Below, piece by piece: positions 43,154 through 64,000 of a stretch of 64,000 bases of DNA (position 1 is its first letter; every line of letters begins with the position of its first letter). The position numbers were made by a program, and so were the translations under genes. The DNA is from Phaeobacter sp. B1627. GTDB lineage: Bacteria; Pseudomonadota; Alphaproteobacteria; Rhodobacterales; Rhodobacteraceae. The notes below the pieces were generated by a model. That model ran no database searches. It had not been told where the DNA came from and saw only the letters and a program-made list of their open reading frames with translations. The DNA lies in the NCBI RefSeq assembly GCF_006265095.1, contig NZ_VCNK01000020.1, positions 62,001 through 126,000 on the forward strand. The letters are read 5' to 3'.

Positions 43154-43166
43154 TCCGGAGCGGGCC

Positions 43167-43207
43167 GCGGGGGCCAGCCCCCGCACCCCCGAGGTATTTG
43201 GGAAAAG
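43167..43207. repeat. Extragenic hairpin element (REP-like)
   Basis: GCGGGGG-CCAG-CCCCCGC stem-loop followed by ACCCCCGAGGTATTTGGGAA. Elements of this form (C-rich hairpin, then CCCCGAGGTATTT) recur between genes in many Rhodobacterales genomes. Only one copy is in the window, so repetition is from general knowledge, not seen here. Confidence 0.55.
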
Positions 43208-43255
43208 ATGAAAACGGTGAAGGCCGCGTTTATACGCTGCCGAGGAGTAGGCCAC

Positions 43256-46943: not shown

Positions 46944-47459
46944 GAGCCTTCCTTTGAAGGCGCCAATAATGCCCTATTGCGAAATTGTTGTAAACGATTG
47001 CGGTTTTTTTGAAAACCGAAGAAGAAGCCATTTCATAGGACATAGATCCAGGAAGAGAACGGTGTGCCGGTTTCTGATCAGTGCCGCGAATACTTTATGC
47101 GCAATGCAACACTCCCCTGGCAGCGAGATGGAGCGGAAAGGATACGGGGCACTTGTGGGTTACCTTGTACCACACGGCAGGCAATCTGCGCCATCGCTCT
47201 CCTGGGCGCAGGTCCAATTCACCGCCAATCGGCTGTCGCGAAAATGGGGCGCGCAACTTTAGCCTGACACGATGACGCAACATCAGTCATAGGTGGCTCG
47301 GTCCGGTTGACCAGTTTCGAGCCGTTTCAAGAAATCGTTCTCCAATGCCAACTGGCCGATCTTCGCATGCAGGGCTGTGGTTCCGTCGTGGTCGTCTTGC
47401 CATCTTCGCTCCTTCGTCCCGGCAACGCTGCCGGAGTGGGAGCAGAAAATCCACCTAGC
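46944..47459. other. Intergenic boundary region with IS fossil
   Basis: This 516-bp stretch separates the catabolic locus from the biosynthetic cluster. Its left end should hold the LacI gene promoter; TTGTAAACGATTGC near 46990-47003 resembles half of a LacI-family operator. Its right third contains the IS3 OrfA remnant at 47283-47415. The rest (47040-47280) has short unrecognised frames on both strands and no supported gene. Confidence 0.5.
47283..47415 (-). pseudogene. IS3-family OrfA C-terminal remnant
   Basis: Reading the minus strand gives LHAKIGQLALENDFLKRLET followed shortly by a stop at 47283. LHAKIGQL-x-LENDFL is the hallmark C-terminal coiled coil of OrfA of IS3-group elements. The normal ending (ALNKAGLLSAKR type) and OrfB are missing, so this is a short fossil. 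It lies just outside the ACP gene and marks the left border of the biosynthetic cluster. Confidence 0.7.
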
Positions 47460-47771
47460 TCAACAGTTCGGATTCGTCGGGCCACCTCTGTCGGCAGAGG
47501 CCAGGCGCTGACAGTAAGAAATCACGTTTTCAACGGTTTGGAACTCAAGGTAATTTAGGTACCGATCTTCGAATTCCAACCCGATCTGGTTTTCAATCTT
47601 GAGCACAAGCTCGATGAACCCGAATGACGTGACACCGAGCTCCTCCAGGCGCGTATCGACGGATATCGCCTCTGGCAAATCAAGGTGGTTCTGAAAGATA
47701 CTAACTATGTCGTTATGCACGGCAAGCGACCAATTCGCAGGGAGAGAGCGCGGCAGGCTTTTGTCGGCCAC
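47460..47771 (-). CDS. Discrete acyl/peptidyl carrier protein
   Basis: Free-standing carrier protein of 103 residues. The phosphopantetheine site is Ser49 in LEELGVTSFGFIELVLKIEN; the residue before the serine is Thr rather than the usual Asp. The helical register of the second half (IGLEFEDRYLNYLEFQTVEN) fits an ACP. It lacks its own loading enzyme, so it must be charged by an NRPS adenylation domain or another ligase. It lies downstream of a cupin gene by 39 bp on the same strand and would need the phosphopantetheinyl transferase at 63880. Confidence 0.88.
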   Translation of the reverse strand: MADKSLPRSLPANWSLAVHNDIVSIFQNHLDLPEAISVDTRLEELGVTSFGFIELVLKIENQIGLEFEDRYLNYLEFQTVENVISYCQRLASADRGGPTNPNC

Positions 47772-47810
47772 GCTCTCGGTGTTTTCAGGATACCGGGCTT
47801 TGCCGAGGTC

Positions 47811-48521
47811 TCAGTACCCAGTCGAGACTGGGAATTTGCCTTGCATCGCGCGCCGCGAGCTCGGCTCCCCTTTCCAATAGGCGGCCACCCAAATCGTTTT
47901 CTCAAAACTCGCCGTTTCAAGGACCTGGCTTTTTGTTTTGGCCGGAATGAATATGTGGTCCCCAGGCGACAACTCGAACTTTTCGTCTTCCATTGCGATC
48001 GTCGCGCCGCCGCTGACAAGCATCAGCCATTCGTGAACACCCTGCTCGCAGGGGGCTCCGGCAACTTGTCCCGCAGAGATGACGCGTTCAATTCGCACAG
48101 ATTCGGTTTCGGCAAGCGACTCGATCATGGCGGTGTCGCGGAATATATTGCGCACGCGGGGTGTAACTTTCTCCGCGTCGGGGGCGGGAAAAATCCCCGG
48201 GCGGTTCTTTCCGGCGGCCGAAATCTTCACCCAAACAGATTCTTGTCCTTCTCTGGTCGCCTCGACGCGGTTCTCCTCGCCGGGCTCCGTCATGATCGAA
48301 TCGCCGGCACGCAAAGAGACCGTTTCCTTTTCGCCTTTGTACTCAAGCTCCAGAGTGCCCTTCAGCATGATCAGGAAATCGAGTGCCTCCTGTGGGCAAA
48401 AAGCAGCCGCTTCGGACGCTTGCCCGCGAGTGACGACACGCTCGACTTTGATGACGTCACTTTCAACAAGCGTTTCAACAAAGACCGCGTCATCGGTTCT
48501 GGTTAAATCCTTTTTCTCCAT
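47811..48521 (-). CDS. Double-cupin protein 1
   Basis: Cytoplasmic bicupin of 236 residues. Two RmlC-like beta-barrels are visible: the first around LDFLIMLKGTLELEYKGEKE then RAGDSIMTEPGEENRVEAT, the second around HEWLMLVSGGATIAMEDEKF then LSPGDHIFIPAKTKSQVLET. It is paralogous to the cupin gene at 61652 (shared HEWL(M/L)ML and SGTVW/KTIWVA-x-(Y/F)-x-(K/R)G elements). Metal-ligand histidines are few, so it may be a non-enzymatic binding protein, an isomerase or an oxygenase. It is transcribed with the ACP gene and divergently from the P450. Confidence 0.82.
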   Translation of the reverse strand: MEKKDLTRTDDAVFVETLVESDVIKVERVVTRGQASEAAAFCPQEALDFLIMLKGTLELEYKGEKETVSLRAGDSIMTEPGEENRVEATREGQESVWVKISAAGKNRPGIFPAPDAEKVTPRVRNIFRDTAMIESLAETESVRIERVISAGQVAGAPCEQGVHEWLMLVSGGATIAMEDEKFELSPGDHIFIPAKTKSQVLETASFEKTIWVAAYWKGEPSSRRAMQGKFPVSTGY

Positions 48522-48928
48522 AATAGCTTTCCCCCTTAGGATGAATGTCTTCTTTGAAGTTCAGTCCTGAGCCAAATACGATGGCCGAGCAAGGTAGCAG
48601 GGTTCTCATAGGGCATTAGCCCATGACATATTGCGCAAAAATAGTATATTCCATTGTGATATTGGCGCAAGAAAATACGTGCGCACCCTCGCGGTTGAGG
48701 CATATGCTACCGATAAATCAGATATTTTTTTGCCTATTCAATGCAGCCTTCGGTTGCGCAGAGCACTCAGAGACTGTTTGGATGAAATTCAGCTATGACG
48801 TGCACCTCAGATTCGAATACATTCCTGAAGTGTGTGCGCCACAATGACCGCGCCTGATGCCGCAGGCGTCTGTCGATCATCACCGCCGCCACCAGCGCCG
48901 AAGCCCCCCAGAGATGAGGAGTGCCGCC
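48522..48928. promoter_or_regulatory. Divergent promoter region of cupin 1 and P450
   Basis: A 407-bp AT-rich gap with no supported gene. It carries a palindrome CAT-A-GGGC-ATTA-GCCC-ATG at 48607-48625, an inverted repeat TTGCGCAA / TTGGCGCAA at 48631-48670, and the motif shared with the HemN-like/PPTase gap (separate entry). The P450 ribosome site GAGGAG lies at 48916-48921. Confidence 0.6.
48607..48645 (+). promoter_or_regulatory. Shared cluster motif, copy A
   Basis: Reads TAGGGCATTAGCC, then ATGA, then TATTGCGCAAAAATA. It matches copy B at 63801-63840 (opposite strand) at about two thirds of positions, with identical TAGGGCA, ATGA, TGC and AAATA blocks and small spacing changes. In this orientation it points toward the P450 gene. 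It is a candidate operator for the cluster. Confidence 0.4.
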
Positions 48929-50158
48929 ATGAATTTGGACATACCGCTGAGTTTTGATGATACCGACCTGCGTCCCGATCTGGCAAATCCCGAGAACTAT
49001 GCGATCGGGGACGGCCTGGACCTGTTGGCCCAGGTCCAACAGACCGACCGGGTTTACTGGAACAAGAGCGAGCTGGTTCAGGATTTCTGGGCCGTTACCG
49101 GATGGTCCGAAGCCCGCGAGTTTTTTTTGGACGCGAAGTCGTTCTCTAGCGCACAGGGAATGAACGTCGGTCAGAACGACGATTCCGCCAAGAGCGCAGC
49201 GGGCAAGATGCTGATTGTCACCGACCAGCCGCGCCATCGCGTGATGCGCCGCATTATCGCGCCTCTTCTTGAACCCAGGCAGCTCGCCGAATTGCAGCCC
49301 GGGATGAACGCGCTGCTGTCCCGCACTATCGAGCCGTTGGTCGATGGACCTGACTTCGATTGTGTCAGTGTGCTTACCAGCGTCTTGCCGGCCTTTACGG
49401 TCTGCAAGTTCCTTGGCGTGCCGGACAGCGATGTGGCCGAGATCACTCAGATGGTGAGGATCGCATATGACGTTGAAGCAGAGGCCGGGAGCCAGACCCG
49501 GATGCAAAAATTCGAGGCGAATGCCGGGCTCTTTGACTACTTCGGCGGGTTGATTGAGCGTAGACGGCACGCGCCGCAACAGGATGCCGTCAGCCGGATG
49601 CTGACCGACCGCTTTCAAGGATCGGGCCTTACAGGAGATGAAATGGTCTTCAACTTGCATGGGCTGATCACTGGGGGAAATGAAACCACGCGCCACGCTT
49701 CAACGGGTGCGATCCTCGCCTTCGCCGATCACCCCGAGCAGTGGGAAAAAATTCGGTCTGATCCGGAGACGCTGCCGCGCGCTGTCGAAGAAGTCATGCG
49801 ATGGACCTCTCCGAGCTTGAACCTGATGCGCACCTGCGTTGCCGACACCGTCCTGGCGGGAAAGGAAATCCTTTGCGGAGAACGGGTTAGCGCTTGGTTC
49901 CCCATCATCAATCGGGACCCCCTTAAGTTTGATCAGCCCAACATGTTCCGCGTCGACCGTGAAGAAAACCCGCATCTGACTTTTGGACTAGGGGCGCACG
50001 CCTGCGTCGGCGGCGCGATGGCGCGCTATGAGGTGGCCCTGCTGCTTGATTGTCTGGCCCGGTATGTTGCGCGGTTCGAACGGGCCGGGCCCTCACGTCG
50101 GCTGCGCTCGAACCTGCTTTGGGGAATCGTCGAAGCGCCGGTACGGCTCTTGTCGTAA
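48929..50158 (+). CDS. Cytochrome P450
   Basis: Bacterial class I P450 of 409 residues, soluble, needing ferredoxin partners not seen here. The haem-thiolate loop is LTFGLGAHACVGGAMARYEV, the K-helix ExxR is EEVMRW, and the I-helix is GLITGGNETTRHASTG, with the oxygen-activating Thr but Gly-Asn in place of Ala-Gly-x-Glu. The ATG at 48929 follows GAGGAG; the upstream frame to 48857 lacks similarity. Within the NRPS cluster it most likely hydroxylates or cross-links a carrier-bound residue or the final product. It faces the NRPS gene tail to tail. Confidence 0.94.
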   Translation: MNLDIPLSFDDTDLRPDLANPENYAIGDGLDLLAQVQQTDRVYWNKSELVQDFWAVTGWSEAREFFLDAKSFSSAQGMNVGQNDDSAKSAAGKMLIVTDQPRHRVMRRIIAPLLEPRQLAELQPGMNALLSRTIEPLVDGPDFDCVSVLTSVLPAFTVCKFLGVPDSDVAEITQMVRIAYDVEAEAGSQTRMQKFEANAGLFDYFGGLIERRRHAPQQDAVSRMLTDRFQGSGLTGDEMVFNLHGLITGGNETTRHASTGAILAFADHPEQWEKIRSDPETLPRAVEEVMRWTSPSLNLMRTCVADTVLAGKEILCGERVSAWFPIINRDPLKFDQPNMFRVDREENPHLTFGLGAHACVGGAMARYEVALLLDCLARYVARFERAGPSRRLRSNLLWGIVEAPVRLLS

Positions 50159-50178
50159 CACCGCCCCGATGCGTAAGC

Positions 50179-50190
50179 CTCCCCGGAGGA
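50179..50190. terminator. Small hairpin between convergent P450 and NRPS genes
   Basis: CCTCC-CC-GGAGG in the 36-bp gap between the two converging genes. The stem is only five base pairs and lacks a T-run next to it, so termination here is uncertain. Confidence 0.3.
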
Positions 50191-50194
50191 TGGG

Positions 50195-53100
50195 TTATTT
50201 CGGATTTAACAGGATCTCTTCCGCACGCAGCACAGCCTCCGCCTGATCTGCAAGGCGGCTGAAGACACTGGCTGTGTACTTCCCTGAAAACTCTGCCTTC
50301 AGCAGGATGTTCCGCATCGTCTCCAAGCCTGCGGCAGAGGCTGACAGCGCAGAAAGCATGACCGTCGAGCCGCTGCCATTGATTTGTTCACAGGCGAACT
50401 TGGCGATTTTGCGCGCGTTCATGGCCTCGCCGATGAAGAAGCTCAGAAGTCGCGCGGTTTGCCTTGCGTCATCTTGGTGGTTTCCGGGCGCGGTCAAAAT
50501 CGCTTTGACCTTCTCCAGCGCCGCCAAAGTTGATGCACCGTGCCGGGCTTGCGTGGTCAAAAACGTGTCCTGCGCCAGCGCCGCAATCTCGGCTTGAGAG
50601 AATGTATTGCGCCCGTGTTTGCCGCGGATCACGCTGAAGCTCGGCGCCAGACGATCAGCGTTGAACACTTTGTTGAAGCTGACGTGACCGGCGACCAATT
50701 GCGCATAGGCCACCGTGCAGTGACGATAGTTCAGACCGATCATGGTGTCGTTGACGACGATGTCAAACTGCTGGGCCGTATCATCAAACCCGACCACCAA
50801 GGCGCTATGGCCGCTATGTTTTTGCTGAAAATGATCCTTCTGCAGGGAGACATCAAACCAGTCAAAATCCACCAGAGCGGGGTGGCCTGCAGTCAAGGCA
50901 TCACGCAAATTATTGACCAGATCGTGCGATTGAATGTGATCTTCAACCGCCACACCCAGTCTCGCCAGAAGCTCCGGTTGGTCATAGGTGTCATGGTAGT
51001 GCACGCTCAACTCGGGCTCGGCCTCAAAATAAGTGGCCGTATTGGCAAAGAACGGCAGAAACGCAGCCGAGAAATAGTGCGTTGCCGAAAGCAGACCTTG
51101 ATTTCGGCAATGCTGGAAAAACACCTCGTTGAATGGTTCAACGTCCAGCCGGACACGACGGGACTGGGCCGACGAGGGGGCGGGCTCGGGCGGCAACGTT
51201 GCGAGCATGCCCGCCAGACTGAATTTCATGATCCCGAGGACCTGACTGAGCACCGCGCTTTGTGCGGCGTCTGTGACTCCCGCCTCGATGTGCAGCTTGG
51301 ACGCATCTGCCCGAGCCGTCACCCAAAGCGATAGGGTTGGATCTGGTTGCTCCTCACTCTTCGTGCCCAATGAAAACGCAATCGGGGCGCGGACAGGATC
51401 TGCCCCGGTGCGCGCCGCATCTATTCGATCCGCGATCTCTCGCTGGCTGGCCACGGGGTCATGCGGCGCATCCAGATCTGCGGAGAGCACAAATCTATCG
51501 ACAGACGCGCCTTGGTGCAGGGACACGCCAACCGTTTTTTCGAACGGCGAGAATTTCAGCGCCGATGCAAGCGACGTCAAAAGTATGCGCGTGAGCTGCT
51601 GGCCTCTTTGCGGTGCTTGAAACTCCAGCCGACCGGGCACCGGCAGATCGATCGAGAACGACTCTGTGACCATCCTCTGCAAAGGCACTGCGGCAATCAG
51701 ATCCTCAGCCTGACGCGCGAGGGAGGCCGCAAGCGCATTGATCGAATTCAGCTTGAACAAGTCGGTTACCGTGACGGAGAATCCAGCGGACTTCAACTGC
51801 CGCACAATGACGCTAGCGGTGATTGAGTCCCCCCCGATATCAAAGAGATTGGCGTCCGGATCGAGGCTGCTTTGCGGCACACCAAGACTGTTTGCCCAGA
51901 TCTTTTCAATCTTTTCCAACAATCCTTTGGGGATGTCCCTTGTGGCTTCTATCTCAGCGCGGCCCCGTGATGTTGCGGGCGCCGGCAGGCTCTTCCTGTC
52001 AACTTTTCCGTTCGGCGAGAGAGGAAGAGAGTCCAGCTGGATGAGGTGCGACGGCAGCATGAACGCCGGCAGACGGTCGCGTATATGTTGACGTAGCGCC
52101 GCCTCGTCCTCCACTTCATGAGACACAAAATAGGCGGCCAAGCGCGTCTCGTCGCGCACGTCGGAAAAGCCCACAACGATCACGTCCCGAATCGCGCCGA
52201 ACTCGGCGATGCATCGCTCGATCTCTTCGGTTTCGATCCGGTAGCCGCGGATCTTGATCTGGTGATCCGCGCGAGAGATGTAGACAAGATCGCCATCCAG
52301 CAGCCACTTTGCCAAATCATTGGTGCAATACAGAATGCGGTTCGGATCATACGGATCCTGCACGAATTTCGCGGCGGTCTTCTCGGCATCGTTGATGTAG
52401 CCAGCACCTATGCCGAGCCCGCCGATATAGATCTCTCCGGTCATCCCCTCCGGCACCGGAACCCCATAGGGATCAAGCAAGCGGATATAGGTGGACTTCA
52501 ACGGGCGACCTATGCTGGCTGAGGCGCGCGCATCCGCCGCGACATTGACATCCTTGAATGTGGTGTAAATTGTCGTCTCGGTGGTGCCGTAGCCATTTAC
52601 CAGGCGGATGTCAGAAAAGGTCTTGTGCCAATTGGCCAGCCTATAGGGTTTGAGTGCCTCCCCCCCCAGCACGACACAGCGCAGCGCGCCACATCGGCCA
52701 GCGCTGAGCATCTCTTCGGACAGCAGATAAAACGCTGACGGCGGCTGGCAGAGGAAGGTGACCCCCTGCCACTCAATCCAGCGCAACACCTCGCCAGGGT
52801 CCTTCTGGACCTCACTGGGCAAGATCACCATCTTGGCGCCATTCAACAGGCTGCCGAATATCTCCCAAACGGACACATCAAAGCAGGTACTGTGAAACTG
52901 CGAGAGCACGTCGCTGGGCTGGATATCAAAATGTGCACCGACGTAGTTGATCAGACTTGCAAGATTTCGATGTCGAACGCCCGCGCCTTTCGGCACACCG
53001 GTCGTGCCCGACGTGAAAAGCAGATAGGACAGGTCGTCCGGTCGGGCGCGGGCGGCGGGGTTCTCGGACGGGTATCCCGACAGATCCTCCTGATCGATCC

Positions 53101-56100
53101 GTACGATCAAAGAGAAATCGCCAAACGCGCTGGGGTCCTCGCGATCCGTCAACAGGACGCGCGCATCGCTTTGTCCGGCGATCAGGCGCGTCCGATCTCG
53201 GGGGTAGGTAAAGTCGATGGGGACATAGGCCGCACCCAATTTTTGGGCGGCCAGCATGCAGCCGATACTCTGCCAAGTCCGGTCGCACAAAACGGCCACC
53301 CTATCGCCCCGCCCAACCATGTCTTGCAGCCGATGCGCCAGCTGATTCGCCCAGGCGTTCAGCGTCGCGTAGCTGACCGAGCCGTTAAAGGCCACGATGG
53401 CGATGGCATCTGGCTGCGACTGAACCTGTCGTTCGAACAGGGACACCACGGTGTCATCGCCGAATTCAGCGCCGTCCAAAGCGTCTCCGAGACGGAGCAG
53501 CCTCCGGGTGTCGGCATCGTCAATGATAGCGACGCTGGACAGCGGACGGTCCGGAGCGTCCAGGACGCCGCCAATCATTGTGCACAGGCATTTGAGGATG
53601 CGTTCTGCTGTCGCGGGTCGGAACCGCTTGGTGTCATACTCTATCGCGCATTCGAATAGATCGCCCCTGTCCCGGATCTCGAATAGGAGCGGATATTTTG
53701 ATGTGGCGTTGTGGACATCGCGCTGGGTCAGCTGTGCATCGCCCATGTCGAGCCGCCGTTGACCCTGTTTTACAAAGGACAACATTACGTTGAAGACGCT
53801 TGAGAAATCTCGGTCACTGCGCCAGCCAATCGCCTGCAGCACGTCGTTTAACTGGCCTTCAGCGTGGGCCTGGTCGGTTTGCAGGGTCGCGCCGATTCGC
53901 TGCGCCATCTCTACGAAGGACAGATCGCTATCAACGCTATTGGACAGTAGCAAAGTGTTCAGCAGCAGGCCGACGGTCTCTTGGGTGTCTACCGTTTGGC
54001 GTTCAGACACAGGGCAGGCGAGGGTTACCTGTGACTGGCGCCCTATGCGCGCCAGAAGGCAGGACACCGCCGTCAGAAAGAAGCCGAACGCGCTGCAGCC
54101 ATGTGTGTCGCAGAAGTGACGCAGCTGCTGCGAGACCTCGGGCTTGAGGGACGTGACGACCTGTGCCCCAAATCCGGAGCTTCCTTCGATTGCATAGTCG
54201 TAGGGCAAGTCGACGGGCTCCAGGTCCAGCGACCCAAGCCGATCACGCCAATAGTCGAGCAGCCCTGTCTGGGCGGGTGATTGTCGTGCCGCGCGCTGCG
54301 TTGCGACATAGTCTGCAAACCGCTGGCCGCTTCGCAGAGGAAGCGCTGCGCCAGTATAGGCACGGGCCACATCCTCCAGCACCATATCCAGCGAAGGTTC
54401 ATCGATAATCACATGATGAAACGCAATCACGACGAAGCTCTTGTCGCCAGGGCCTTGCACCAAGCCCGCCCGCACCAAGGGCGCAACTTCCAAATCAAAA
54501 TCCGACAACGCGGGCAGGACCACCGTCGACAGATCGGCTTCGGAAGAGATGGAGAAGTTGCGAAACGGTACACGGCATTTGTTGGTGAACCTGACCATCG
54601 TGGTTTCGGCCAGAAAGACGAACTGACTGCGGAGGACCTCATGGTGCGCAACCACGCAATTGATCGCCGCTTCCAGCCGCGTGGGGTCCAGCGGCCTGGA
54701 GGCTTCGAACACGACGCTTGCGGCGTAGTTCCGGTCGGTCTCGCCAAACTGCTTCAACGCGAGCATCCGGGCCTGCGCCCGTGAGACCGGGAACAAGGCC
54801 TCCGGGTCCAGAGGCTTGGAAGCCGAATTCGAGGCGCCTGCCGCGTTGCTCAACGTATCGTCGATGAGATGCGCCATATCGCGCAGCGTGTTCGCGTTGA
54901 AGATCTCTCGCAAAGACAGGCTGCAGTTAAAAGTCTGCGCGATCCGTGACAACAGCTGCGTCGCTTTGAGGGAATGGCCACCTGCAGCAAAGAAATTATC
55001 GTCTGGGCGCACCGATCCAAGGCCAAGCAGCGATTTCCAGATCTCAGCCAGTCTTGCCTCGTTTTCGGTTTCCCACTTCACGGGGCGGTGCCCATCAGCC
55101 GAGGATCCAAGACGCTCTCGCATCAAGGCGACGTCGTATTTGCCGTTTTCCCTGATTGGCAGCGCAGCCATTTGCAGCATCTGATGCGGCACCATGTAGC
55201 TGGGCAGGTCTTGCGACAGCTTGGATCGAATGGTGTCGTATTGAACCTCCGATTTTGCCGAAAAACAGGCCGCCAGGGTGGCATCGTTGGCATCGCCGAC
55301 CACGAAAACGCAGGCAGTCTCGATGCTGTCGAGCGATTTCAGACGGTCTTCCACCTCACCAAGCTCTACCCGCATCCCGCGCAGCGACACCTGGTTGTCC
55401 TTTCGGCCCAGGAACTCGATTTGCCCATCTTCGCACCAACGTGCGCGATCGCCAGTGGCATAGGTGCCCACTCCATCGACCTGGGAAAAGGGCGCACCCT
55501 CTTTCGGAGTTGCGTTCAGATACCCGCCCCTGACGAGCCCATGGCCCGCCAGAAGTATCTCGCCGGAGACACCAATCGGCTGCGGTCGCCCCTGATCGTC
55601 GACAATCCGGACACAGGTATTCGCGATTGGTCGTCCGATGATGTTGGGGGCGTCCCGGTCGACGGTTTCCGCATAGGTCGACACCACAGCGTTTTCGGTC
55701 GGGCCATATTCGTTCGAGATGGCGGCCTTCGGGCAGAACCGCGTGATTGCGTGTATCAGGCTCGGGTCAATCGTGTCTCCGGCCAGGGTGATGCGCCGCA
55801 GGCTTTCCAGCTCTCTCGTGGGATCGCCATCGGCAAGCATCGCTTGCAGCAACGCAGGCCCGATGGTCATAAACGTTACCGCGTATTGCGTCACAAGACC
55901 ACGCAGAGCAGAGGGGTCGCGGGCGGCGTCATCCGTCGGCAAGATGACATGCTCACCCGACACCAGCGGCGAGAAAAGATTGAGAATGAAGGCGTCGAAG
56001 CTGGGTGGGAAGACCAACAACACTGTCTGCTTCGTGGGCTCGGCATAGGTCGTTGCGCGCCACTGCACGGCATTTGCGATGCCCCTGTGAGAGATCTCAA

Positions 56101-57277: not shown

Positions 57278-57322
57278 TGGATTGCCTTGAAATAAGCGGG
57301 AAGAGGCCCCTTCGTTTCGAAT

Positions 57323-58939
57323 TCAAAATGCAAAGGTCACGTTGGCGACTGCGTCGTTTTGCACCAGCGCAATAGGCGGTGCCTGCCCCTCGTTGCCCAG
57401 TCTCCGGCGCACACGGCTGTTGAAATCGCGCAAGAATGCCTTGATCTGCTCTATGCTCCACCCACGGCTCAAGAGGTTGAACAGGCTGGGATAATCGAAA
57501 TCGTTCTGCGGCAGCCACACAGATTTGGTGATATTGCCATGAATATGTTCGATCCAGTCGGCAGCCTGCCGGGACGTCATGGTGTTGTGGGTCCATTCGA
57601 ATTGCGAGTTCCGGAGCCCGTATTTTTCAGCGCTATCGTGGACTGGCGTCATCGTATCATAGTACCAAAGCTGCGCTCGGAAAAAGTCAGGCTGCCCCTC
57701 CTCAATCATCGCGATCGTCTCGCCTACGGTTTCGTCCGTCTCACCGGGGAAGCCGATTATGAAAGACGCGTAACTCATGATTTCGTGTTGCCGCAGCCAC
57801 TTCAGACCCTGGAGGTAGCTCCGTGCACGCGACTTCTTGTTCATGTTGCGCAAGATGGTGTCGCTGCCGGACTCAAGCCCGAGGAACACACCTTCGCACC
57901 CCGCCTGCCTGAGCTTTGAAATAATGTTCTCGTTGACGTGCTGCAGCCGGAGGTTGCAGTTCCAGCGAAAGCTGTAATTGCGCCTCAGCAGGCGCTCAAG
58001 AATGTCTTCAAAGCGGTGGATCGGTACGTTGAACGTATCATCGATGAAGGTCACACTGTTCACAGAACCGAGCGCCTCGATATGGTCCAGCTCCTTGATC
58101 ACAAGGTCCGGAGGCAGATAGCGGTAGGTCCCGGCATGTGCGGGGAAACTGCAGAACGAACAGGAAAAGGGGCAGGAAACAGCTGTGCGCGTCATCACCA
58201 TCCTGCGATTGTCCTCGCCGACAGCATCCCGGAACAGCGACCAGGTCGTCATGTGATCGGCGAGTTGGTGGACCTCGGCTGTCTGCCGGAAACCCGGGGT
58301 CGGTGCAGCTGCTGCGGCGATACAGTTTGGCACGTCGGTGGGTTCTTTGTTGTCACGCAGAGCCGACAGCACATCGACCAGCGCCTGTTCGCCCTGCGAA
58401 TTGACGACATAGTAGTCCGCTCCGATTTGCGACATCAGAAAGGCGAACTCTTCCTGCCCGTTGATCTTGAACTGCGTATTGATGTAGGGGCCGCCGACGA
58501 TGACTTTGACCTGTGGCGCATGAGTGCGGATGAGGTCCATGATCTCCATGATGGGAAGGGCGAAGACATAGTAGGTCGTGGTGATGGCGACGGCGCGAAT
58601 ACGTTTTTCTTTCAGGAGGGACACCAGTTTTTCGCGTCCTTCCTGAAAGCTGTTGATGAAGTCGAACGAGAAGCCAGCCTGGTCAAGGAAACTCCCCATG
58701 ACCGTCACAGTAGCGCTGAGGACGTTATCATAGCTGAACTCTGCGCCGTCGGACCGATAGTGCCGATTGAAATGATCGGTGCAGGACAGGATTTCGCCGT
58801 TGGCCTCGTAAAAGCTAAGTCCGACATCACGAAACGCCCCGGCTTTTTCGCCCATTTGGCGAAGGGTGCGAACGTATTCCGAGAAATTCATTTGGTTGTT
58901 GCCGACGATAAGGCAATCGATATCGAAGTCTTGGGTCAT
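57323..58939 (-). CDS. Cobalamin-binding radical SAM enzyme, PhpK type
   Basis: Class B radical SAM protein of 538 residues. The N-terminal half has a B12-binding-like Rossmann fold (IRAVAITTTYYVFALPIMEI, then VKVIVGGPYINTQ). The cluster motif CxxxCxxC is Cys256, Cys260 and Cys263 in SCPFSCSFCSFP. It ends with sequence typical of the PhpK family (FFRAQLWYYDTMTPV, WLPQNDFDYPSLFNLL). PhpK itself methylates phosphorus in phosphinothricin synthesis; relatives occur in NRPS clusters without phosphonate genes. No phosphonate gene is visible here, so C-methylation of an unactivated carbon on a carrier-bound intermediate is the more likely role. It lies 13 bp after the C-domain gene. Confidence 0.85.
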   Translation of the reverse strand: MTQDFDIDCLIVGNNQMNFSEYVRTLRQMGEKAGAFRDVGLSFYEANGEILSCTDHFNRHYRSDGAEFSYDNVLSATVTVMGSFLDQAGFSFDFINSFQEGREKLVSLLKEKRIRAVAITTTYYVFALPIMEIMDLIRTHAPQVKVIVGGPYINTQFKINGQEEFAFLMSQIGADYYVVNSQGEQALVDVLSALRDNKEPTDVPNCIAAAAAPTPGFRQTAEVHQLADHMTTWSLFRDAVGEDNRRMVMTRTAVSCPFSCSFCSFPAHAGTYRYLPPDLVIKELDHIEALGSVNSVTFIDDTFNVPIHRFEDILERLLRRNYSFRWNCNLRLQHVNENIISKLRQAGCEGVFLGLESGSDTILRNMNKKSRARSYLQGLKWLRQHEIMSYASFIIGFPGETDETVGETIAMIEEGQPDFFRAQLWYYDTMTPVHDSAEKYGLRNSQFEWTHNTMTSRQAADWIEHIHGNITKSVWLPQNDFDYPSLFNLLSRGWSIEQIKAFLRDFNSRVRRRLGNEGQAPPIALVQNDAVANVTFAF

Positions 58940-58952
58940 GCGTTCCGGCTCC

Positions 58953-60347
58953 CTAAAAGTCGAAATCCGTGTGGGCCACTAGATCCTGAGCCGCACGCGA
59001 TATCACCAGCTCCCGAAGGCTGGTGTCTGGGGTCCTTTCGAACCATGCGAGAATATCCTCTAACACGTCGCACACTTCGGACGCGTCCCAACGGCCTTTG
59101 CGGGTATCGTGTCGGACCGCCAGGCTCGGGTTGTCGCGGTTGAGGAAGACGTCCAAACAGACTGCAAAATGCGCCTGTTCCCGATAGCGGATCTTGTCGA
59201 TCTCAATCGGAAGGGTGCTGGTATGGGTATTGCTGATCCTCGGCTGATCTATCGAGATGTTGACGAGGCTCGACAGATCGTTGGCGGTCAGCCCGCCGGT
59301 GGCCATGATTTCGCTGAGCGACAACCAGCCATTGCCGGGCCATTGCATCATGTGGCGATGCACCGCCTTGATCTGTTCGGCGGCACTACTGTGACGCGCG
59401 CAGCGTATCGGAAGCGAATTGACGAAGAGACCCGCCACCGAGCCGGCTCCCCGGAATGGTAGCAGGCGGTTGGCATAGACACAGCCGATGACGTCTTCTT
59501 CTCGGCCGTGACGGGTCAAGGAGTAGGCGCACCAGGCAGCGAGAAAGACACTGTTCGGTGTGACCTTGTGCAGGCTGGCCAGCTGATCAAGACGATCGAG
59601 AACGGACAGTTTCAAGTCGGCCTTGGTCGTCTCGATACACTGGTCGATCGTTTCCAACGGCAGTTCAAAAGGCACACGTGACCTGCCTCGTCCAAGATAG
59701 CCACGCCAGAACGCCACTGCCTTGACCTTGGTCTCACCGAGGGTCCAGTCGACGTAGTCCCGGTATTGCCGCGGTTGCTTCTCCAGCCGCAGAGGCTCGC
59801 CCCGAAGCGCCGCCGCATAAAGCTGTGTGAACTGCTCCTGCAGCATCAAGAGTGTCCAAGAATCCATGATAATGTGGTGGTAGGTCCACAAAAAAACAAA
59901 GGTCTCGTCGGCCAGCTGCAGAAGTTTGCACCGAGACGCGGCACTCGCCAGATCGAGATTGCATGCCGCTTCGCGGTCCAAGATCGCTTCAATCGCCACA
60001 TCCGGTTCTGCTGCCGCACGCAGGTCGAGACACTCAATATCCAGTCGGACATAGGGCAATATCACCTGGCGCAGGCCCTTCGGCGGGCGAATTGTGAAGA
60101 CCGTGCGCAGAATTTCATGCTCGCGCACCAAGGTTTCTGCGACACGCGTTGCGATATCGACGTCCAATGGTCCGCGAATCTCGCAGGTCATCTGCTCAAG
60201 GTAGACGGTGTTGCGCACCTGCAGATGGTGGAAATACATCCCCTCTTGCAGCGGAGAGAGAGGGCGGACATGCCCTTGCAAGCGCGAAGTGGCGTCGACC
60301 ACATCGGGCTTTGGGAGGCTCTCCGGACACGCGCCCCTAGGCATCAT
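58953..60347 (-). CDS. Free-standing NRPS condensation domain
   Basis: Complete stand-alone condensation enzyme of 464 residues. C1 motif LSPLQEGMYFHH, catalytic HHIIMDSW (His157, His158, Asp162), QYRDYVDW, and the C5-type GAGSVAGLFVNSLPIRCARH are all present. It has no attached adenylation or carrier domain. It could join the acyl or aminoacyl group on the discrete ACP to PCP1, whose own C domain is only a C-lobe, or act as a release or amide-forming enzyme. It overlaps the aminotransferase gene by 11 bases and precedes the radical SAM gene by 13 bp. Confidence 0.9.
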   Translation of the reverse strand: MMPRGACPESLPKPDVVDATSRLQGHVRPLSPLQEGMYFHHLQVRNTVYLEQMTCEIRGPLDVDIATRVAETLVREHEILRTVFTIRPPKGLRQVILPYVRLDIECLDLRAAAEPDVAIEAILDREAACNLDLASAASRCKLLQLADETFVFLWTYHHIIMDSWTLLMLQEQFTQLYAAALRGEPLRLEKQPRQYRDYVDWTLGETKVKAVAFWRGYLGRGRSRVPFELPLETIDQCIETTKADLKLSVLDRLDQLASLHKVTPNSVFLAAWCAYSLTRHGREEDVIGCVYANRLLPFRGAGSVAGLFVNSLPIRCARHSSAAEQIKAVHRHMMQWPGNGWLSLSEIMATGGLTANDLSSLVNISIDQPRISNTHTSTLPIEIDKIRYREQAHFAVCLDVFLNRDNPSLAVRHDTRKGRWDASEVCDVLEDILAWFERTPDTSLRELVISRAAQDLVAHTDFDF

Positions 60348-61647
60348 GCACCCCCCGGTCAGCAGTGCGAGACAACGGGCGATCCCATGCGGGTCTGGGG
60401 GCGCTGTCTCTGAGTGCGCGCATGCAGTCAGCCAGGATCGTCAAGCCGTGTTCCAATGTCTCGGCGGGCTGATTCAGGCTGATCCTCAGGCATTGCTTCA
60501 TCCAGGCATGCTCTTGCTCAGAACCCAGGAAAAAATAGCGCCCGGGCGTAAAGAAAACACCGCGTTCCTTGCCCATGCGGTAGAGTTCCAGGTCGTCGCT
60601 CCATGGCTCGTCACACCATAGCCAAAGGAACATCCCACCGTCTTGCGCGTGGGTTTTCCAGTTTATCGACGCGGGAAGACAGTCACGAGCCGCGCGCTGC
60701 GCATGCACGGCTGCCCTGCGGTAATGAGGGGAGATATTGTTGCGGACCAATGCCAGAATGCTCTGATCGCGCAGCGCAGCCGTCGCAATGTCCTGCGACA
60801 GGCGCGAGGCATGCAATACGGTGTTCGACACAAACGCGGTCATTGCGTCAATCCGGTCGGGGTCCCCGATCGCAAACCCCAAGCGTGCGCCAGGCAGGCC
60901 TGCCTTGGACAGGCTGAAGCAATGCAGCACACGCGGGTCCAGCGTCATCCAGGTGGTGCCGTGCGCGATGGCCGGAAAGGGCAAACCGTAGGCGTGATCG
61001 AGCAGAACCGTAGCGTTCGTCCGCTTTGCGGCATCCAGGATCAGCAATAGCGCCCGCTGGTCCAAGACGTCCGATACAGGGTTGCTCGGAGTCGAGGCCA
61101 CAAAAAGGCCTGCCCGATCAATCTTCGCAAGCGCGCTCTCGTCCAATCGGTAGCGGAACGAACGTTGATCGAGGATTTCCACTTGCGGTTCAATGCCCCG
61201 CAGCGCGTTTCGTCCAGCGCGCAGCGCATCATAACCAGTGTAATCTGGCAAACGGGGAAGTATGATCGGGTGATCACAATCGGCAAAAAGCACGCCCGCA
61301 GCAAAACACAGAAACTGACTTCCGGGACCCACCACAATGTTCTCCGGACCGATGTCCCAGTCGAGATGCGTCCGAAAGAAACGGGCGATCTCCAGTAGCA
61401 GCGCCTCCTCGCCGCGCGAAGCGCCGTAAGAACCCATTTTGCAAGTCGCATTCTCGTCGATCACCTCTTGGGTCAGGGAGCGCCAATAGGTTGTGACCTC
61501 AGGGATCGGTGCCGGATTGCCGATACCAAGATTGACGAAGTTCCCGTTGCCTTGATCAGCGGTGTGGAGCGTTTGCGCGATGTCCTCCATTATGGTTCGC
61601 AACCCATTGGGACTGGCGAGCGCAGCTCCTTCTTTGGATACAAACAT
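60337..61647 (-). CDS. PLP aminotransferase, AvtA-like
   Basis: Fold-type I aminotransferase of 436 residues most like valine-pyruvate transaminase AvtA: SPNGLRTIMEDIAQTLHTAD at the start, NLGIGNPAPIPEV, the PLP lysine Lys248 in CFSLSKAGLPGARLGF, and the C-terminal GVFFTPGRYFFLGSEQEHAW. The ATG at 61647 (AAGGG upstream) begins the family match; 59 codons of open frame upstream do not match it and overlap the cupin gene. In the cluster it probably aminates a 2-oxo acid to supply an unusual amino acid for one of the adenylation domains. Confidence 0.9.
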   Translation of the reverse strand: MFVSKEGAALASPNGLRTIMEDIAQTLHTADQGNGNFVNLGIGNPAPIPEVTTYWRSLTQEVIDENATCKMGSYGASRGEEALLLEIARFFRTHLDWDIGPENIVVGPGSQFLCFAAGVLFADCDHPIILPRLPDYTGYDALRAGRNALRGIEPQVEILDQRSFRYRLDESALAKIDRAGLFVASTPSNPVSDVLDQRALLLILDAAKRTNATVLLDHAYGLPFPAIAHGTTWMTLDPRVLHCFSLSKAGLPGARLGFAIGDPDRIDAMTAFVSNTVLHASRLSQDIATAALRDQSILALVRNNISPHYRRAAVHAQRAARDCLPASINWKTHAQDGGMFLWLWCDEPWSDDLELYRMGKERGVFFTPGRYFFLGSEQEHAWMKQCLRISLNQPAETLEHGLTILADCMRALRDSAPRPAWDRPLSRTADRGVHDA

Positions 61648-61651
61648 CGAT

Positions 61652-62452
61652 CTACCCTTGGAGTTCCCGGAACGCTTTGAGCCGTCGGGCCGCGGCAGAC
61701 ATTTTCCTGCCATCGGCCAAAGGATCCGTTGATGCGGACGCTTCTGCGGCGCGCGGCTGCCAGTCAAAGTCGCCGATCGCACCGCGATAAAACACCGCCA
61801 TCCAAACGGTTCCACTTTCGACATTTGTATCGCGCACCCCGTTGGGAACCCCGGGCGGCAGATAGATGGTGTCTCCCGCAGTCAGGGGATACTCTGTCCC
61901 TTCGATGGTAAAGACCGTGTCGCCCTTCAACATGAGCAGCCATTCGTGAGAGCTGCTGTCGCATTCACGCCCCCCCGGTGACGCGTGGCCGAGCGAGGTT
62001 ACGACATCGAACCTGACGAAACGGGTCTCGCAAACCGTTACGATCCGGGGGCGATCGGCAAACACGTTCGAGACAGACAGAGCCCCCACGTTACGACGTG
62101 TCTCAGGGAACCGCTCGTGTTCGACATCTCCATGAAAGAGACAGCGAACCACTGTTGCAGCGCCGGTGACCTCGTGCAGCTGGTCTGCGCCGGTGACGAC
62201 GATATAGTCGCCCGAGGCCATACGGACAGGTGATCCACAGCGATTGTGTCTGCACTCCAGACTGCCCTCCTGAACGAGAAGAAGCGCATTCAAACCGTTC
62301 CCGTTGAGCAAGCCTGCGCTTTCGCTGGCCTCGTTCAGTGTCCACTGTTCAATCAACAGGTTCTTGCTTTCGGTGCAGGTCAGGACTTGACCTGTTGGCG
62401 AAGGGTGCGGAGCTCTGGCGGGAAACGCCGATTGCGAAGGGGCTTCACTCAT
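61652..62452 (-). CDS. Double-cupin protein 2
   Basis: Bicupin of 266 residues, paralogous to the protein at 47811. First barrel around LNALLLVQEGSLECRHNRCG and SGDYIVVTGADQLHEVTGAA; second around SHEWLLMLKGDTVFTIEGTE and AGDTIYLPPGVPNGVRD. The second barrel keeps a clear AGDTIYLPPGVP cupin motif. The start overlaps the HemN-like stop by four bases and the stop is four bases from the aminotransferase start. The role is unknown; an enzyme acting on a bound intermediate or a product-binding protein are both possible. Confidence 0.82.
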   Translation of the reverse strand: MSEAPSQSAFPARAPHPSPTGQVLTCTESKNLLIEQWTLNEASESAGLLNGNGLNALLLVQEGSLECRHNRCGSPVRMASGDYIVVTGADQLHEVTGAATVVRCLFHGDVEHERFPETRRNVGALSVSNVFADRPRIVTVCETRFVRFDVVTSLGHASPGGRECDSSSHEWLLMLKGDTVFTIEGTEYPLTAGDTIYLPPGVPNGVRDTNVESGTVWMAVFYRGAIGDFDWQPRAAEASASTDPLADGRKMSAAARRLKAFRELQG

Positions 62453-63717
62453 TGCGCTACCAACTCGTCGAGCCCGTTGTTTATGATGCTCTCGACGATC
62501 CCCAGGCTGACAATTCCCTCAGTCGTCAACGAAATCGACGTAGTGGTGACCTCGATGAACCCAAGATGCGCTAGGTGGTCCAGGAGGTCCGCAAAATACA
62601 CCTGCGGCTGCACGCCATACCGTGCCGCGAAGTCAGCCGTCAGATATTCTTTTCGTCTAATCCCATAGAGCAGACAGAATCGCATCTGCTGATCGCGATC
62701 CATGCGGCGTCCATAGCCGGTCTCATACTGGCCGTTGTTGATCCCTTTCATGTACTTCTCGATGTTTTTTTCGTTGAAGAACACAGTGCCTTGAAGGCAA
62801 CTCATCGAGGACATGCCAAGGCCCAGCCAATCCCTGGTGTCCATCTGCCAAAGCCCATAGCCGTGGTGATGTTGCGGGCCGCGAGCGTAGTGGAAGGACG
62901 TGTAGCGATGGAAACCGGCTTGCGCGAGCAGAGGCGAACCGACGGAAAGCTGTTCGCAGAGTTGCTCGAACTTGGGAACGTCGAACTTGCCGTTGCGGAT
63001 CTGTTTGTCGAATGTGGTTTTCTCGTAAATCCACAGCGGGTAAAATGCGAGGTGATCGACGGGCAGTTCGGCGAGGATGCCGATGTCCCGCTCCACGATC
63101 GCGGGAGAGCTACCCGGCAATCCATAGATCAAGTCGATGCCAAGCGAGGCAATCCCCTCCTCCTTGCACATATGGAAGGTTTCAATTGCTTCCGTGGCAT
63201 CATGGCGCCGTCCTGCTTCGTCCAGCAGGGTTTGATCGAAGGTTTGGGCTCCAACATTCAGTTTGACGGCGCCTAGGGATTTCAGCGCGCGGATCTTCTC
63301 GCGCGTGATCGAACTTGGAAAGCCTTCGAAGACGATTTCTTCCAGTTCGGAGCAATCGAAGAGTTCGAAGATGTCATCAAACATTGCCTTGATTTGGTCG
63401 GCGCTGATTGCGGTGGGCGTTCCACCGCCAATTTGAATCCGCGCAACGGAGACATCTTGCTCACGCAGTATCCGACCAAAATACGCCATCTCGGCCTTGA
63501 GCGCGCTCATATACTGAACGACCAGGTCTCCAGTGAATTTGGACCCGGCTACGATAGAGAAAGTGCAAAAAAAGCAACGCGTTTCACAGAAAGGTATATG
63601 GACATAAAGAGCGATCTTCTCGCCAGGAGAGACACGTCGCTCTAGTTTGGATTGCGTGTCAAAGTTGTGTGACGGATAGTAGTGAACGCCAGTATTCTTT
63701 CCAAAACTATGTGACAT
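62449..63717 (-). CDS. HemN-like radical SAM enzyme
   Basis: Radical SAM protein of 422 residues in the coproporphyrinogen-oxidase-like (HemN/HemW) superfamily. The cluster motif is Cys44, Cys48 and Cys51 in PFCETRCFFCTF, preceded by the typical ALYVHI. The GGGTPT SAM-binding motif follows, and a HemN C-terminal domain is recognisable (LLYGIRRKEYL...). It is not a housekeeping HemN: it opens a biosynthetic operon. Cluster-bound HemN-like enzymes are class C methylases or cyclopropanases that use two SAM molecules. Its substrate is unknown. AGGAA precedes the ATG. Confidence 0.88.
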   Translation of the reverse strand: MSHSFGKNTGVHYYPSHNFDTQSKLERRVSPGEKIALYVHIPFCETRCFFCTFSIVAGSKFTGDLVVQYMSALKAEMAYFGRILREQDVSVARIQIGGGTPTAISADQIKAMFDDIFELFDCSELEEIVFEGFPSSITREKIRALKSLGAVKLNVGAQTFDQTLLDEAGRRHDATEAIETFHMCKEEGIASLGIDLIYGLPGSSPAIVERDIGILAELPVDHLAFYPLWIYEKTTFDKQIRNGKFDVPKFEQLCEQLSVGSPLLAQAGFHRYTSFHYARGPQHHHGYGLWQMDTRDWLGLGMSSMSCLQGTVFFNEKNIEKYMKGINNGQYETGYGRRMDRDQQMRFCLLYGIRRKEYLTADFAARYGVQPQVYFADLLDHLAHLGFIEVTTTSISLTTEGIVSLGIVESIINNGLDELVAQ

Positions 63718-63879
63718 GGAAAATTCCTAACCAGTGGATGAAACGAATCTCACTCTCGTTAAGGTTATCTTCACACTTGCGCATTGCAACCATTGAGCGT
63801 TTATTTGGGGCAAATACCCTCATAAGCATAGTGCCCTAAAGAGTGGCCGCGTGAGGAGCTGCGAAGGGATGAGCGCGCT
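63718..63879. promoter_or_regulatory. Divergent promoter region of the NRPS operon and PPTase
   Basis: A 162-bp gap between the HemN-like gene (leftward) and the phosphopantetheinyl transferase (rightward). It must hold the promoter of the six-gene operon and includes copy B of the shared motif. TTTGGGGCAAA at 63804-63814 is a near-palindrome inside that motif. Confidence 0.55.
63801..63840 (-). promoter_or_regulatory. Shared cluster motif, copy B
   Basis: Read on the minus strand: TAGGGCACTATGC, then ATGA, then TATTTGCCCCAAATA, ending 84 bp before the HemN-like start. It is the counterpart of copy A at 48607-48645, in the same orientation relative to a downstream gene. Confidence 0.4.
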
Positions 63880-64000
63880 ATGTCTGAGCTGGTATGTTGG
63901 ATGGCGGTCCCGGATGCACGCGCGCCTATCACGTCGCAATTGTACACAGCTCTCACGCCCGTCGAACAAGCGCGTGCTGACCGCTTTCGCTTTGCCCGCG
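63880..64000 (+). CDS. Phosphopantetheinyl transferase, Sfp type (3' end outside window)
   Basis: The first 40 codons of an Sfp/AcpT-type phosphopantetheinyl transferase, which adds the 4'-phosphopantetheine arm to carrier-protein serines. The partial protein reads MSELVCWMAVPDARAP near the start and LTPVEQARADRFRFAR at the edge, the N-terminal signature of the family (LSPDE-x-x-RA-x-RF-x-F-x-x-DR). The ATG at 63880 has AAGGGA upstream; an overlapping ATG at 63869 is out of frame. It is divergent from the NRPS operon and would activate PCP1, PCP2 and the discrete ACP. Confidence 0.85.
   Translation, partial: MSELVCWMAVPDARAPITSQLYTALTPVEQARADRFRFAR

What the first reader, a model, noticed from the sequence alone, without database searches (positions are those of the whole stretch)
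47460..64000. Candidate undescribed NRPS cluster with two radical SAM enzymes, P450 and paired cupins
The cluster combines a two-module NRPS, a discrete ACP, a stand-alone condensation enzyme, a PhpK-type cobalamin radical SAM enzyme, a HemN-like radical SAM enzyme, a P450, an AvtA-type aminotransferase, two paralogous bicupins and a phosphopantetheinyl transferase. I do not recognise this combination as a known pathway. Four modifying enzyme classes acting on a product of two or three residues implies a small, heavily tailored molecule. No exporter, resistance or regulatory gene is visible, so it must continue to the right.
Basis: partly seen in the sequence, partly recalled or inferred. Interest (0 to 1): 0.92.

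Follow-up and report, generated by a model that had tools for sequence, protein, structure and literature searches.

The report
Acquired peptide-making cluster with radical enzymes
This bacterium carries a block of genes, apparently acquired, that probably builds a small, heavily modified peptide, and one of its enzymes resembles a family named for methylating phosphorus although this genome shows no sign of the phosphorus chemistry that such an enzyme would need.

Summary
The gene set is real. Window 47460-63717 holds a two-module NRPS, an ACP, a stand-alone condensation enzyme, PhpK-type and HemN/HutW-like radical SAM enzymes, a P450, an AvtA-like aminotransferase and two paralogous bicupins; a phosphopantetheinyl transferase begins at 63880. 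Genes go on to about 75.2 kb (window numbering), including a MATE exporter, a second ACP, an A-T didomain, LuxC and LuxE.

PhpK-type enzyme, C-lobe-A-T module and BtrH-like protein recur together in four genomes of a Lachnospiraceae family (C-lobe weak in three of the modules); a Spirochaetes fragment shows the first two. PEP mutase passes its cut-off in 1 of the 7 genomes with the enzyme, not this one, so phosphinate methylation is unlikely here. I read the enzyme as a C-methyltransferase serving the initiation module; this is inferred.

No close relative of the enzyme appeared in samples of 18 genus, 394 family and 385 class genomes, each counting this one. No structure prediction ran, and the product is unknown. 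New variant of a known kind.

The parts
47460..47771 (-). discrete acyl/peptidyl carrier protein (ACP1), 103 aa
   Evidence: PF00550 E 1.1e-8; best NCBIfam match AmcB, 35.1 bits, cut-off 80; tblastn matches of 36% and 26% identity in the G1136 and G957 clusters
47811..48521 (-). bicupin 1, 236 aa
   Evidence: PF07883 E 1.4e-12, two stretches; TIGR03890 71.9 bits, cut-off 159; 29% identical to bicupin 2
48929..50158 (+). cytochrome P450 with heme-Cys motif FGLGAHACVG (longest ORF from 48857)
   Evidence: PF00067 E 4.4e-21; motif and start
50195..57277 (-). NRPS, 2360 aa: C-lobe only, A1, T1, C2, A2, T2, region of unknown fold, BtrH/C39-like domain
   Evidence: Pfam domains; T motifs at residues 766 and 1815, HHVIID at 954
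56561..57277 (-). NRPS residues 1-239: degenerate C-terminal lobe of a condensation domain, no HHxxxD motif
   Evidence: own sequence alone 10.2 bits against a best of 1.1 among its 200 shuffles; profile of eight such N-termini against full C domains by hhalign, probability 99%, E 2.8e-18, template columns 197-462 of 464; not reported by Pfam
50195..51175 (-). NRPS residues 2035-2360: BtrH_N / Peptidase_C39-like domain; Cys at residue 2057
   Evidence: PF13529 24.2 bits (cut-off 24.0), PF14399 19.5 bits (cut-off 29.7); 20-23% identity, E 2e-13, 1e-11, 1e-10 and 3e-15, to discrete proteins of G790, G957, G1136 and G1069, Cys and His conserved
57323..58939 (-). PhpK-type B12-binding radical SAM enzyme, 538 aa, CPFSCSFC motif
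   Evidence: TIGR04479 564.2 bits over residues 7-509, cut-off 600; PF04055 and PF02310; 42% identity to the G790 homologue
58953..60347 (-). stand-alone condensation enzyme with HHIIMD motif
   Evidence: PF00668 E 4e-56; motif
60337..61647 (-). AvtA-like class I/II aminotransferase
   Evidence: NF006967 343.6 bits, cut-off 402; start codon; solved relatives 3if2, 3g7q
61652..62452 (-). bicupin 2, 266 aa, overlaps the HemN-like gene by 4 bases
   Evidence: PF07883 E 1.9e-9
62449..63717 (-). HemN/HutW-like radical SAM enzyme, CETRCFFC motif
   Evidence: TIGR04107 197.2 bits, cut-off 400; TIGR00539 194.9 bits, cut-off 205.4; phmmer to HemN 1olt 102.7 bits and the methyltransferase NocN 9p2u 85.9 bits
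63880..64000 (+). first 40 codons of a phosphopantetheinyl transferase (whole gene 63880-64587 in window numbering)
   Evidence: PF01648 E 2e-18

Best explanation
An acquired NRPS island of about 28 kb that makes a short, heavily tailored peptide. The minus-strand genes from 63717 to 50195 lie head to tail with overlaps or short gaps and probably form one operon. A1-T1 loads the first amino acid; its pocket code resembles tyrosine codes that I recall. The PhpK-type enzyme methylates a carbon of that residue, free or held on T1. C2-A2-T2 adds a second residue. The stand-alone C joins a unit held on a discrete ACP. The BtrH-like domain takes the chain from T2 and passes it to an amine or to water. 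AvtA supplies or interconverts an amino acid and its keto acid. HemN-like enzyme, P450 and cupins tailor, and MATE exports. Shown: gene content, domain order, the recurring trio, absence of a full-scoring PEP mutase, sporadic distribution in the samples. Inferred: acquisition by transfer, every catalytic step, the order of steps, and that the left and right halves make one product.
For: Domain anatomy. All nine PhpK-type genes that I found in seven genomes lie beside NRPS genes. Eight of the nine have a gene that begins with a C-lobe-like region and an A domain next to them (six, gaps -49 to 45 bases) or one gene away (two, 1246 and 1967 bases). Within 1.5 kb, NRPS similarity was found at 5 of 8 PhpK-type loci (own left out) and 0 of 19 other loci that match our enzyme weakly. 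A BtrH-like protein is in the same neighbourhood in 4 of 4 clusters of the G790 family. PEP mutase over its cut-off in 1 of 7 genomes, on another contig than the rSAM. Precedent: CysS methylates a substrate natively held by a thioester (PMC12846815, one passage seen).
Against: No activity is shown. The rSAM scores below the family cut-off (564 against 600). The C-lobe is clear in four of the eight partner modules (22 to 61 bits) and weak in the other four, ours among them (best stretch 2.4 to 9.2 bits). The partner A-domain codes differ: Gln-like in three, Asn-like in one, Tyr-like here, two that I cannot assign, so no single substrate is implied. For AvtA the best matches in the four clusters are 21-23% identical, and for HemN-like enzyme, cupins, P450, PPTase, MATE, methyltransferase, LLM, LuxC, LuxE and class III aminotransferase tblastn found none, so only the trio and a small ACP are corroborated. 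The control loci come from another lineage. Completeness of the six other genomes is not told, and G791 has only 2.1 Mb. The BtrH-like domains share only 20-23% identity.
Confidence: 0.5

Rival explanations
1. The PhpK-type enzyme is a true P-methyltransferase and the product is a phosphinate peptide related to phosphinothricin tripeptide.
For: Full-length match to TIGR04479, the PhpK family; an NRPS context is also that of phosphinothricin tripeptide (recalled). One relative's genome, G790, does have a PEP mutase over the cut-off.
Against: No PEP mutase over cut-off in this 99.9% complete genome: PF13714 best 20.6 bits against 31.5, TIGR02320 none. Three of the four genomes whose rSAM scores over 600 also show none. 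I saw no phosphonate gene among the family matches of the island.
Confidence: 0.07
2. Amino-acid supply reading: the B12 rSAM methylates SAM or a free amino acid and the AvtA-like PLP enzyme converts the product, as Orf29 and Orf30 do for norcoronamic acid, and A1 or A2 then loads the unusual amino acid.
For: Orf29 (B12 rSAM) and Orf30 (PLP aminotransferase fold) act in that way (PMC7277169, passages seen); here a B12 rSAM and a class I/II PLP enzyme lie in one operon.
Against: That paper speaks of Orf29 as a distinct clade among class B enzymes that include PhpK (the wording leaves some doubt). The AvtA-like enzyme has no counterpart in the G790 cluster, which has the closest rSAM; the class I/II enzymes of the three others are 21-23% identical.
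Confidence: 0.2
3. Two neighbouring clusters, not one: the left genes (47460-63717) and the right genes (63880 to about 75218) make different products.
For: The halves are divergently transcribed with a gap of 162 bases; the clusters in other genomes match only left-half parts, apart from A domains; LuxE and LuxC with an AMP-binding protein and an ACP also occur elsewhere on plasmids.
Against: Both halves were found in this genome alone in the family samples: rSAM, 394 genomes, next best match 106 bits; LuxC, 1 of 384 at E 1e-25. The left half has no PPTase or exporter and the right half showed no condensation domain in the Pfam scans.
Confidence: 0.3
4. A decaying, silent cluster that makes nothing.
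For: The N-terminal C-lobe is degenerate; no promoter-like site in L002 7600-8000, the divergent gap (0.3 are expected by chance).
Against: The genes are open and the motifs that I looked at (P450 heme Cys, A, T and C motifs, rSAM cysteines) are present; a C-lobe is also seen in relatives of other phyla.
Confidence: 0.1

Closest known systems
PhpK/BcpD P-methyltransferase (TIGR04479)
   Same: full-length similarity, B12-binding and radical SAM domains, CxxxCxxC
   Different: 564 bits against a cut-off of 600; no PEP mutase over cut-off; paired with a C-lobe-A-T module (that pairing was not checked in the phosphinothricin producers, whose sequences I did not have)
NRPS clusters of four genomes of the G790 family (G790 = L004, titled Lachnospiraceae; G957, G1136, G1069)
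   Same: PhpK-type rSAM beside a C-lobe-like-A-T module, and a BtrH-like protein nearby
   Different: BtrH-like protein is discrete there; other tailoring genes differ; more modules
CysS of cystobactamid
   Same: B12 rSAM methylase of an NRPS pathway whose native substrate is a thioester (passage)
   Different: sequence not compared here
Orf29/Orf30 norcoronamic acid pathway
   Same: B12 rSAM plus PLP enzyme of aminotransferase fold in an NRPS cluster (passages)
   Different: no evidence that the AvtA-like enzyme acts on SAM; sequences not compared
BtrH of butirosin
   Same: weak BtrH_N and C39-like profile matches, conserved Cys and His
   Different: fused to an NRPS; below the BtrH_N gathering score

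Membership tests
PhpK family radical SAM P-methyltransferase | score over the curated TIGR04479 cut-off | tested here: not met
   564.2 against 600 bits
PhpK family radical SAM P-methyltransferase | B12-binding and radical SAM domains with CxxxCxxC | tested here: met
PhpK family radical SAM P-methyltransferase | phosphinate substrate, hence a PEP mutase in the genome | tested here: not met
PhpK family radical SAM P-methyltransferase | methyl transfer to phosphorus | not testable with these tools
   needs an enzyme assay
Modular NRPS | C, A and T domains with core motifs | tested here: met
BtrH-type acyltransferase | BtrH_N gathering score | tested here: not met
   19.5 bits in the whole protein, 21.8 in the C-terminal piece, cut-off 29.7
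BtrH-type acyltransferase | conserved Cys and His | tested here: met
   alignment of five sequences
BtrH-type acyltransferase | fold | not tested
HutW / HemW / HemN | curated cut-offs | tested here: not met
   TIGR04107 197.2 of 400; TIGR00539 194.9 of 205.4; TIGR00538 145.5 of 324.95
AvtA valine-pyruvate transaminase | curated cut-off of the nearest model | tested here: not met
   NF006967 343.6 of 402
Norcoronamic acid (MeACC) pathway | rSAM of the Orf29 kind and PLP enzyme of the GnmY/Orf30 kind | not tested

The most novel reading that the evidence does not exclude
A cross-phylum NRPS initiation device: a PhpK-type B12 radical SAM enzyme works in trans on an aminoacyl carrier of a module whose condensation domain has been cut down to its C-lobe, the lobe serving as its docking platform, and the chain leaves through a BtrH-like acyltransferase. 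On this reading most of the 'P-methyltransferase' family would be carbon methylases, and PhpK itself a specialised branch.
Probability: 0.3. Interest if true: 0.75.

Novelty: new variant of a known kind. Interest (0 to 1): 0.52.

Why it matters
The TIGR04479 model names these enzymes P-methyltransferases. If many of them serve NRPS modules in genomes without phosphonate chemistry, the name misleads genome mining, and a set of small, C-methylated peptides in Lachnospiraceae and in this alphaproteobacterium may be overlooked. The gene pairing gives a direct, testable partner for each enzyme.

Tried and rejected
Phosphonate reading: unlikely because no PEP mutase passes its cut-off here or in five of the six other genomes; G790 is the exception. 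Orthologous cluster in Rhodobacterales: none seen among 18 genus, 394 family and 385 class genomes (own genome counted in each, samples overlap, family and class drawn from larger groups). Plasmids: all 88 records matched by the rSAM are under 60% identity, and the annotated ones among the 30 rows listed are BchE or other radical SAM or B12-binding proteins or hypothetical. No match for the BtrH-like piece at E 0.01. HemN-like, AvtA, bicupin 1 and stand-alone C gave only matches under 60%. Phages and viral contigs: only partial matches at 20-27% identity. AvtA relatives at 40-41% lie on Streptomyces plasmids near halogenase or LLM and NRPS genes; apart from NRPS domains, only a P450 (33%) in one and a PPTase (39%) in another matched ours. 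Right-flank synteny: relatives share the left flank up to 47008 and then differ; the right junction was not found. NRPS residues 1855-2050 are not a C-lobe by the profile used. The A2 code DVWCVGGIY could not be assigned. The scan finds close relatives only and did not return G957, G1136, G1069 or G1261. Tree: the PhpK-type rows group with support 93/93, not starred; one outgroup row (out_L013) is suspect on its long branch, so the tree is not leaned on. The first ACP2 translation was out of frame; the right one is. L057 repeats L005 and was counted once. The paper names LuxC and LuxE only as a reporter.
Full report
Place and extent. The window is contig C49, 62001-126000, of a genome of 4.35 Mb in 134 contigs, 99.9% complete. 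The best plasmid matches of window 20000-44900 are Ruegeria, Marinovum and Paracoccus, in line with a Rhodobacterales origin. Relatives in the genus share the left flank up to window position 47008 (85%, 78% and 75% identity in G400, G395, G404) and then differ: in G395 and G404 nothing of the next 18 kb matches the 96 kb of our contig that I held, and in G400 the contig ends 58 bases later. The first gene of the cluster ends 450 bases further on. To the right I took 32 kb beyond the window. In window numbering the genes are PPTase 63880-64587, MATE exporter 64722-66173, methyltransferase 66193-66963, a second ACP 67013-67276, a protein weakly like spermidine synthases 67273-68028 (17.4 bits, cut-off 22.9), luciferase-like monooxygenase 68018-69193, A-T didomain 69486-71339, LuxC 71290-72594, LuxE 72461-73561, and a class III aminotransferase 73860-75218. 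The last one's best NCBIfam model is GntE, 279 bits against a cut-off of 525, so that name is not taken. Type VI secretion genes follow.

The left genes. From 63717 down to 50195 six genes lie on the minus strand, head to tail: HemN-like rSAM, bicupin 2 (overlap 4 bases), AvtA-like aminotransferase (start 61647, gap 4), stand-alone C (overlap 11), PhpK-type rSAM (gap 13), NRPS (gap 45). A P450 on the plus strand converges on them; bicupin 1 and ACP1 follow on the minus strand. Base composition does not set the region apart: 52-61% GC per gene against 58.5% for the window.

NRPS anatomy. Pfam gives A1, T1, C2, A2, T2 and a C-terminal C39/BtrH-like stretch. The first 240 residues look like a condensation C-lobe only. 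Pfam does not report it. Against a profile of ten full C domains of these clusters it scores 10.2 bits, with a best of 1.1 among its 200 shuffles. Eight N-termini of this kind, ours included, aligned as one profile, match columns 197-462 of 464 with probability 99%; the HH motif lies upstream of that part. One by one, four of the eight are clear (G957 copy two 60.6 bits, G790 30.4, L005 26.2, G1136 copy two 22.2) and four are weak (best stretch: G1069 9.2, G957 copy one 8.7, ours 7.2, G1136 copy one 2.4). C2 reads HHVIIDE and the stand-alone C reads HHIIMDS. Pocket residues by alignment are DALTTAEVV for A1, DVWCVGGIY for A2 and DPRHLALLA for the A-T didomain. I recall tyrosine codes close to the first; the others I cannot assign.

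The PhpK-type enzyme. It matches TIGR04479 over its whole length with 564 bits, under the cut-off of 600. A scan of genome contigs, which reaches close relatives only, gave two: records titled Lachnospiraceae (L004, later G790) and Spirochaetes (L005, later G791). The TIGR04479 model was then run on samples, centre genome counted each time: 1 of 385 class genomes (own); 4 of 397 genomes of G790's family, all four over the cut-off, two of them with a second copy under it; 2 of 383 genomes of G791's phylum, both under the cut-off. By protein search it was in 1 of 18 genus genomes at E 1e-60; in the family sample of 394 the next best match had 106 bits at 28% identity over 206 residues.

The recurring trio. 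All nine PhpK-type genes found (own, G790, G957 twice, G1136 twice, G1069, L005, G1261) lie beside NRPS genes. Six abut a gene that begins with the C-lobe-like region; two are one gene away, at 1246 and 1967 bases; in G1261 the 9.5 kb contig shows NRPS modules before the rSAM and a KS-bearing protein after it. Four A-T didomain genes that do not neighbour the rSAM (own, G957, G1136, G1069) start with the A domain or within about 40 residues of it. A BtrH-like protein is in the neighbourhood in 4 of 4 clusters of G790's family and is fused to the NRPS here; in Pfam terms the G1136 protein passes the BtrH_N cut-off (32.9 of 29.7), the G790 one does not (27.1), and the other two were judged by alignment only. 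The Spirochaetes and G1261 contigs are too short to tell. Small discrete ACPs like ACP1 are also present in the G1136 and G957 clusters. Against a simple substrate model, the codes of the partner A domains differ: DAQDLGVVD in three (Gln by recall), DLTKIGEVG in one (Asn by recall), DGTSVAEIG and VAWALTGDD at the second copies, DALTTAEVV here; the A domain of L005 is cut off by the contig end. As a control, NRPS similarity within 1.5 kb occurred at 5 of 8 PhpK-type loci (own left out) and at 0 of 19 loci of the family sample that match our enzyme weakly. The three misses are G1136 copy two, G957 copy two and G1261. What the 19 control genes are was not determined, and they come from another lineage than the eight, so this is a modest control.

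No phosphorus route. PEP mutase, which by established knowledge opens nearly all known C-P natural product pathways, is over its TIGR02320 cut-off in 1 of 7 genomes (G790, contig C15; its rSAM is on C2). G1261 has a relative under the cut-off (64 of 320 bits). Own has none, and PF13714 gives 20.6 bits against 31.5. Completeness of the six others is not told; G791 has about 2.1 Mb.

Mechanism. I propose C-methylation at the initiation module. The precedent for a B12 rSAM acting on a thioester-held NRPS intermediate is CysS (PMC12846815, one passage seen). The alternative, supply of a methylated amino acid with a PLP enzyme, has its precedent in Orf29/Orf30 (PMC7277169, passages seen) and is kept as a rival. 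The HemN-like enzyme matches HutW and HemW models about equally and passes no cut-off; among solved structures HemN and the methyltransferase NocN are nearest, so methylation by the class C route is possible but not favoured over others. The cupins have no assigned role; by eye they lack most of the metal ligands that I recall for active cupins.

What is not shown. No activity, product, transcript or structure. Whether left and right halves are one pathway rests on their shared rarity: LuxC was in 1 of 384 family genomes at E 1e-25. That nothing of the kind was found in print rests on ten searches of an open-access library, judged from listings and from passages of three papers; subscription papers and MIBiG were not covered.

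Noticed in passing
window 43166-43213: A stretch of about 47 bases here matches many other places in at least 15 of the 18 genus genomes (query 567-614 in the listed rows), like an interspersed repeat.
   Followed up: no
L003 2552-15630: Type VI secretion genes (ImpA_N, VipB, TssF) and a caspase-domain protein follow the island to the right.
   Followed up: no
L002 12019-17562: LuxC, LuxE and a luciferase-like monooxygenase stand together with an A-T didomain and an ACP: aldehyde-forming genes as in bioluminescence operons, here beside an NRPS.
   Followed up: partly
L042-L045 (G957, G1136): NRPS clusters with two PhpK-type enzymes each, a further B12 rSAM, a VOC protein, an A-T didomain with the unusual pocket TDWQFGIIY and a class I/II aminotransferase (families from Pfam in G1136; in G957 by like N-termini); no PEP mutase over cut-off in either genome.
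   Followed up: partly
L047 2046-3245 (G1069): A gene whose N-terminus reads by eye like S-adenosylmethionine synthetase lies between the A-T didomain and the further B12 rSAM of this cluster.
   Followed up: no
L063 6402-16000: AvtA-like enzyme (40% identity to ours) on a Streptomyces plasmid beside a chlorinating enzyme, a carrier protein, a thioesterase, a cupin and leucine-pathway homologues.
   Followed up: no
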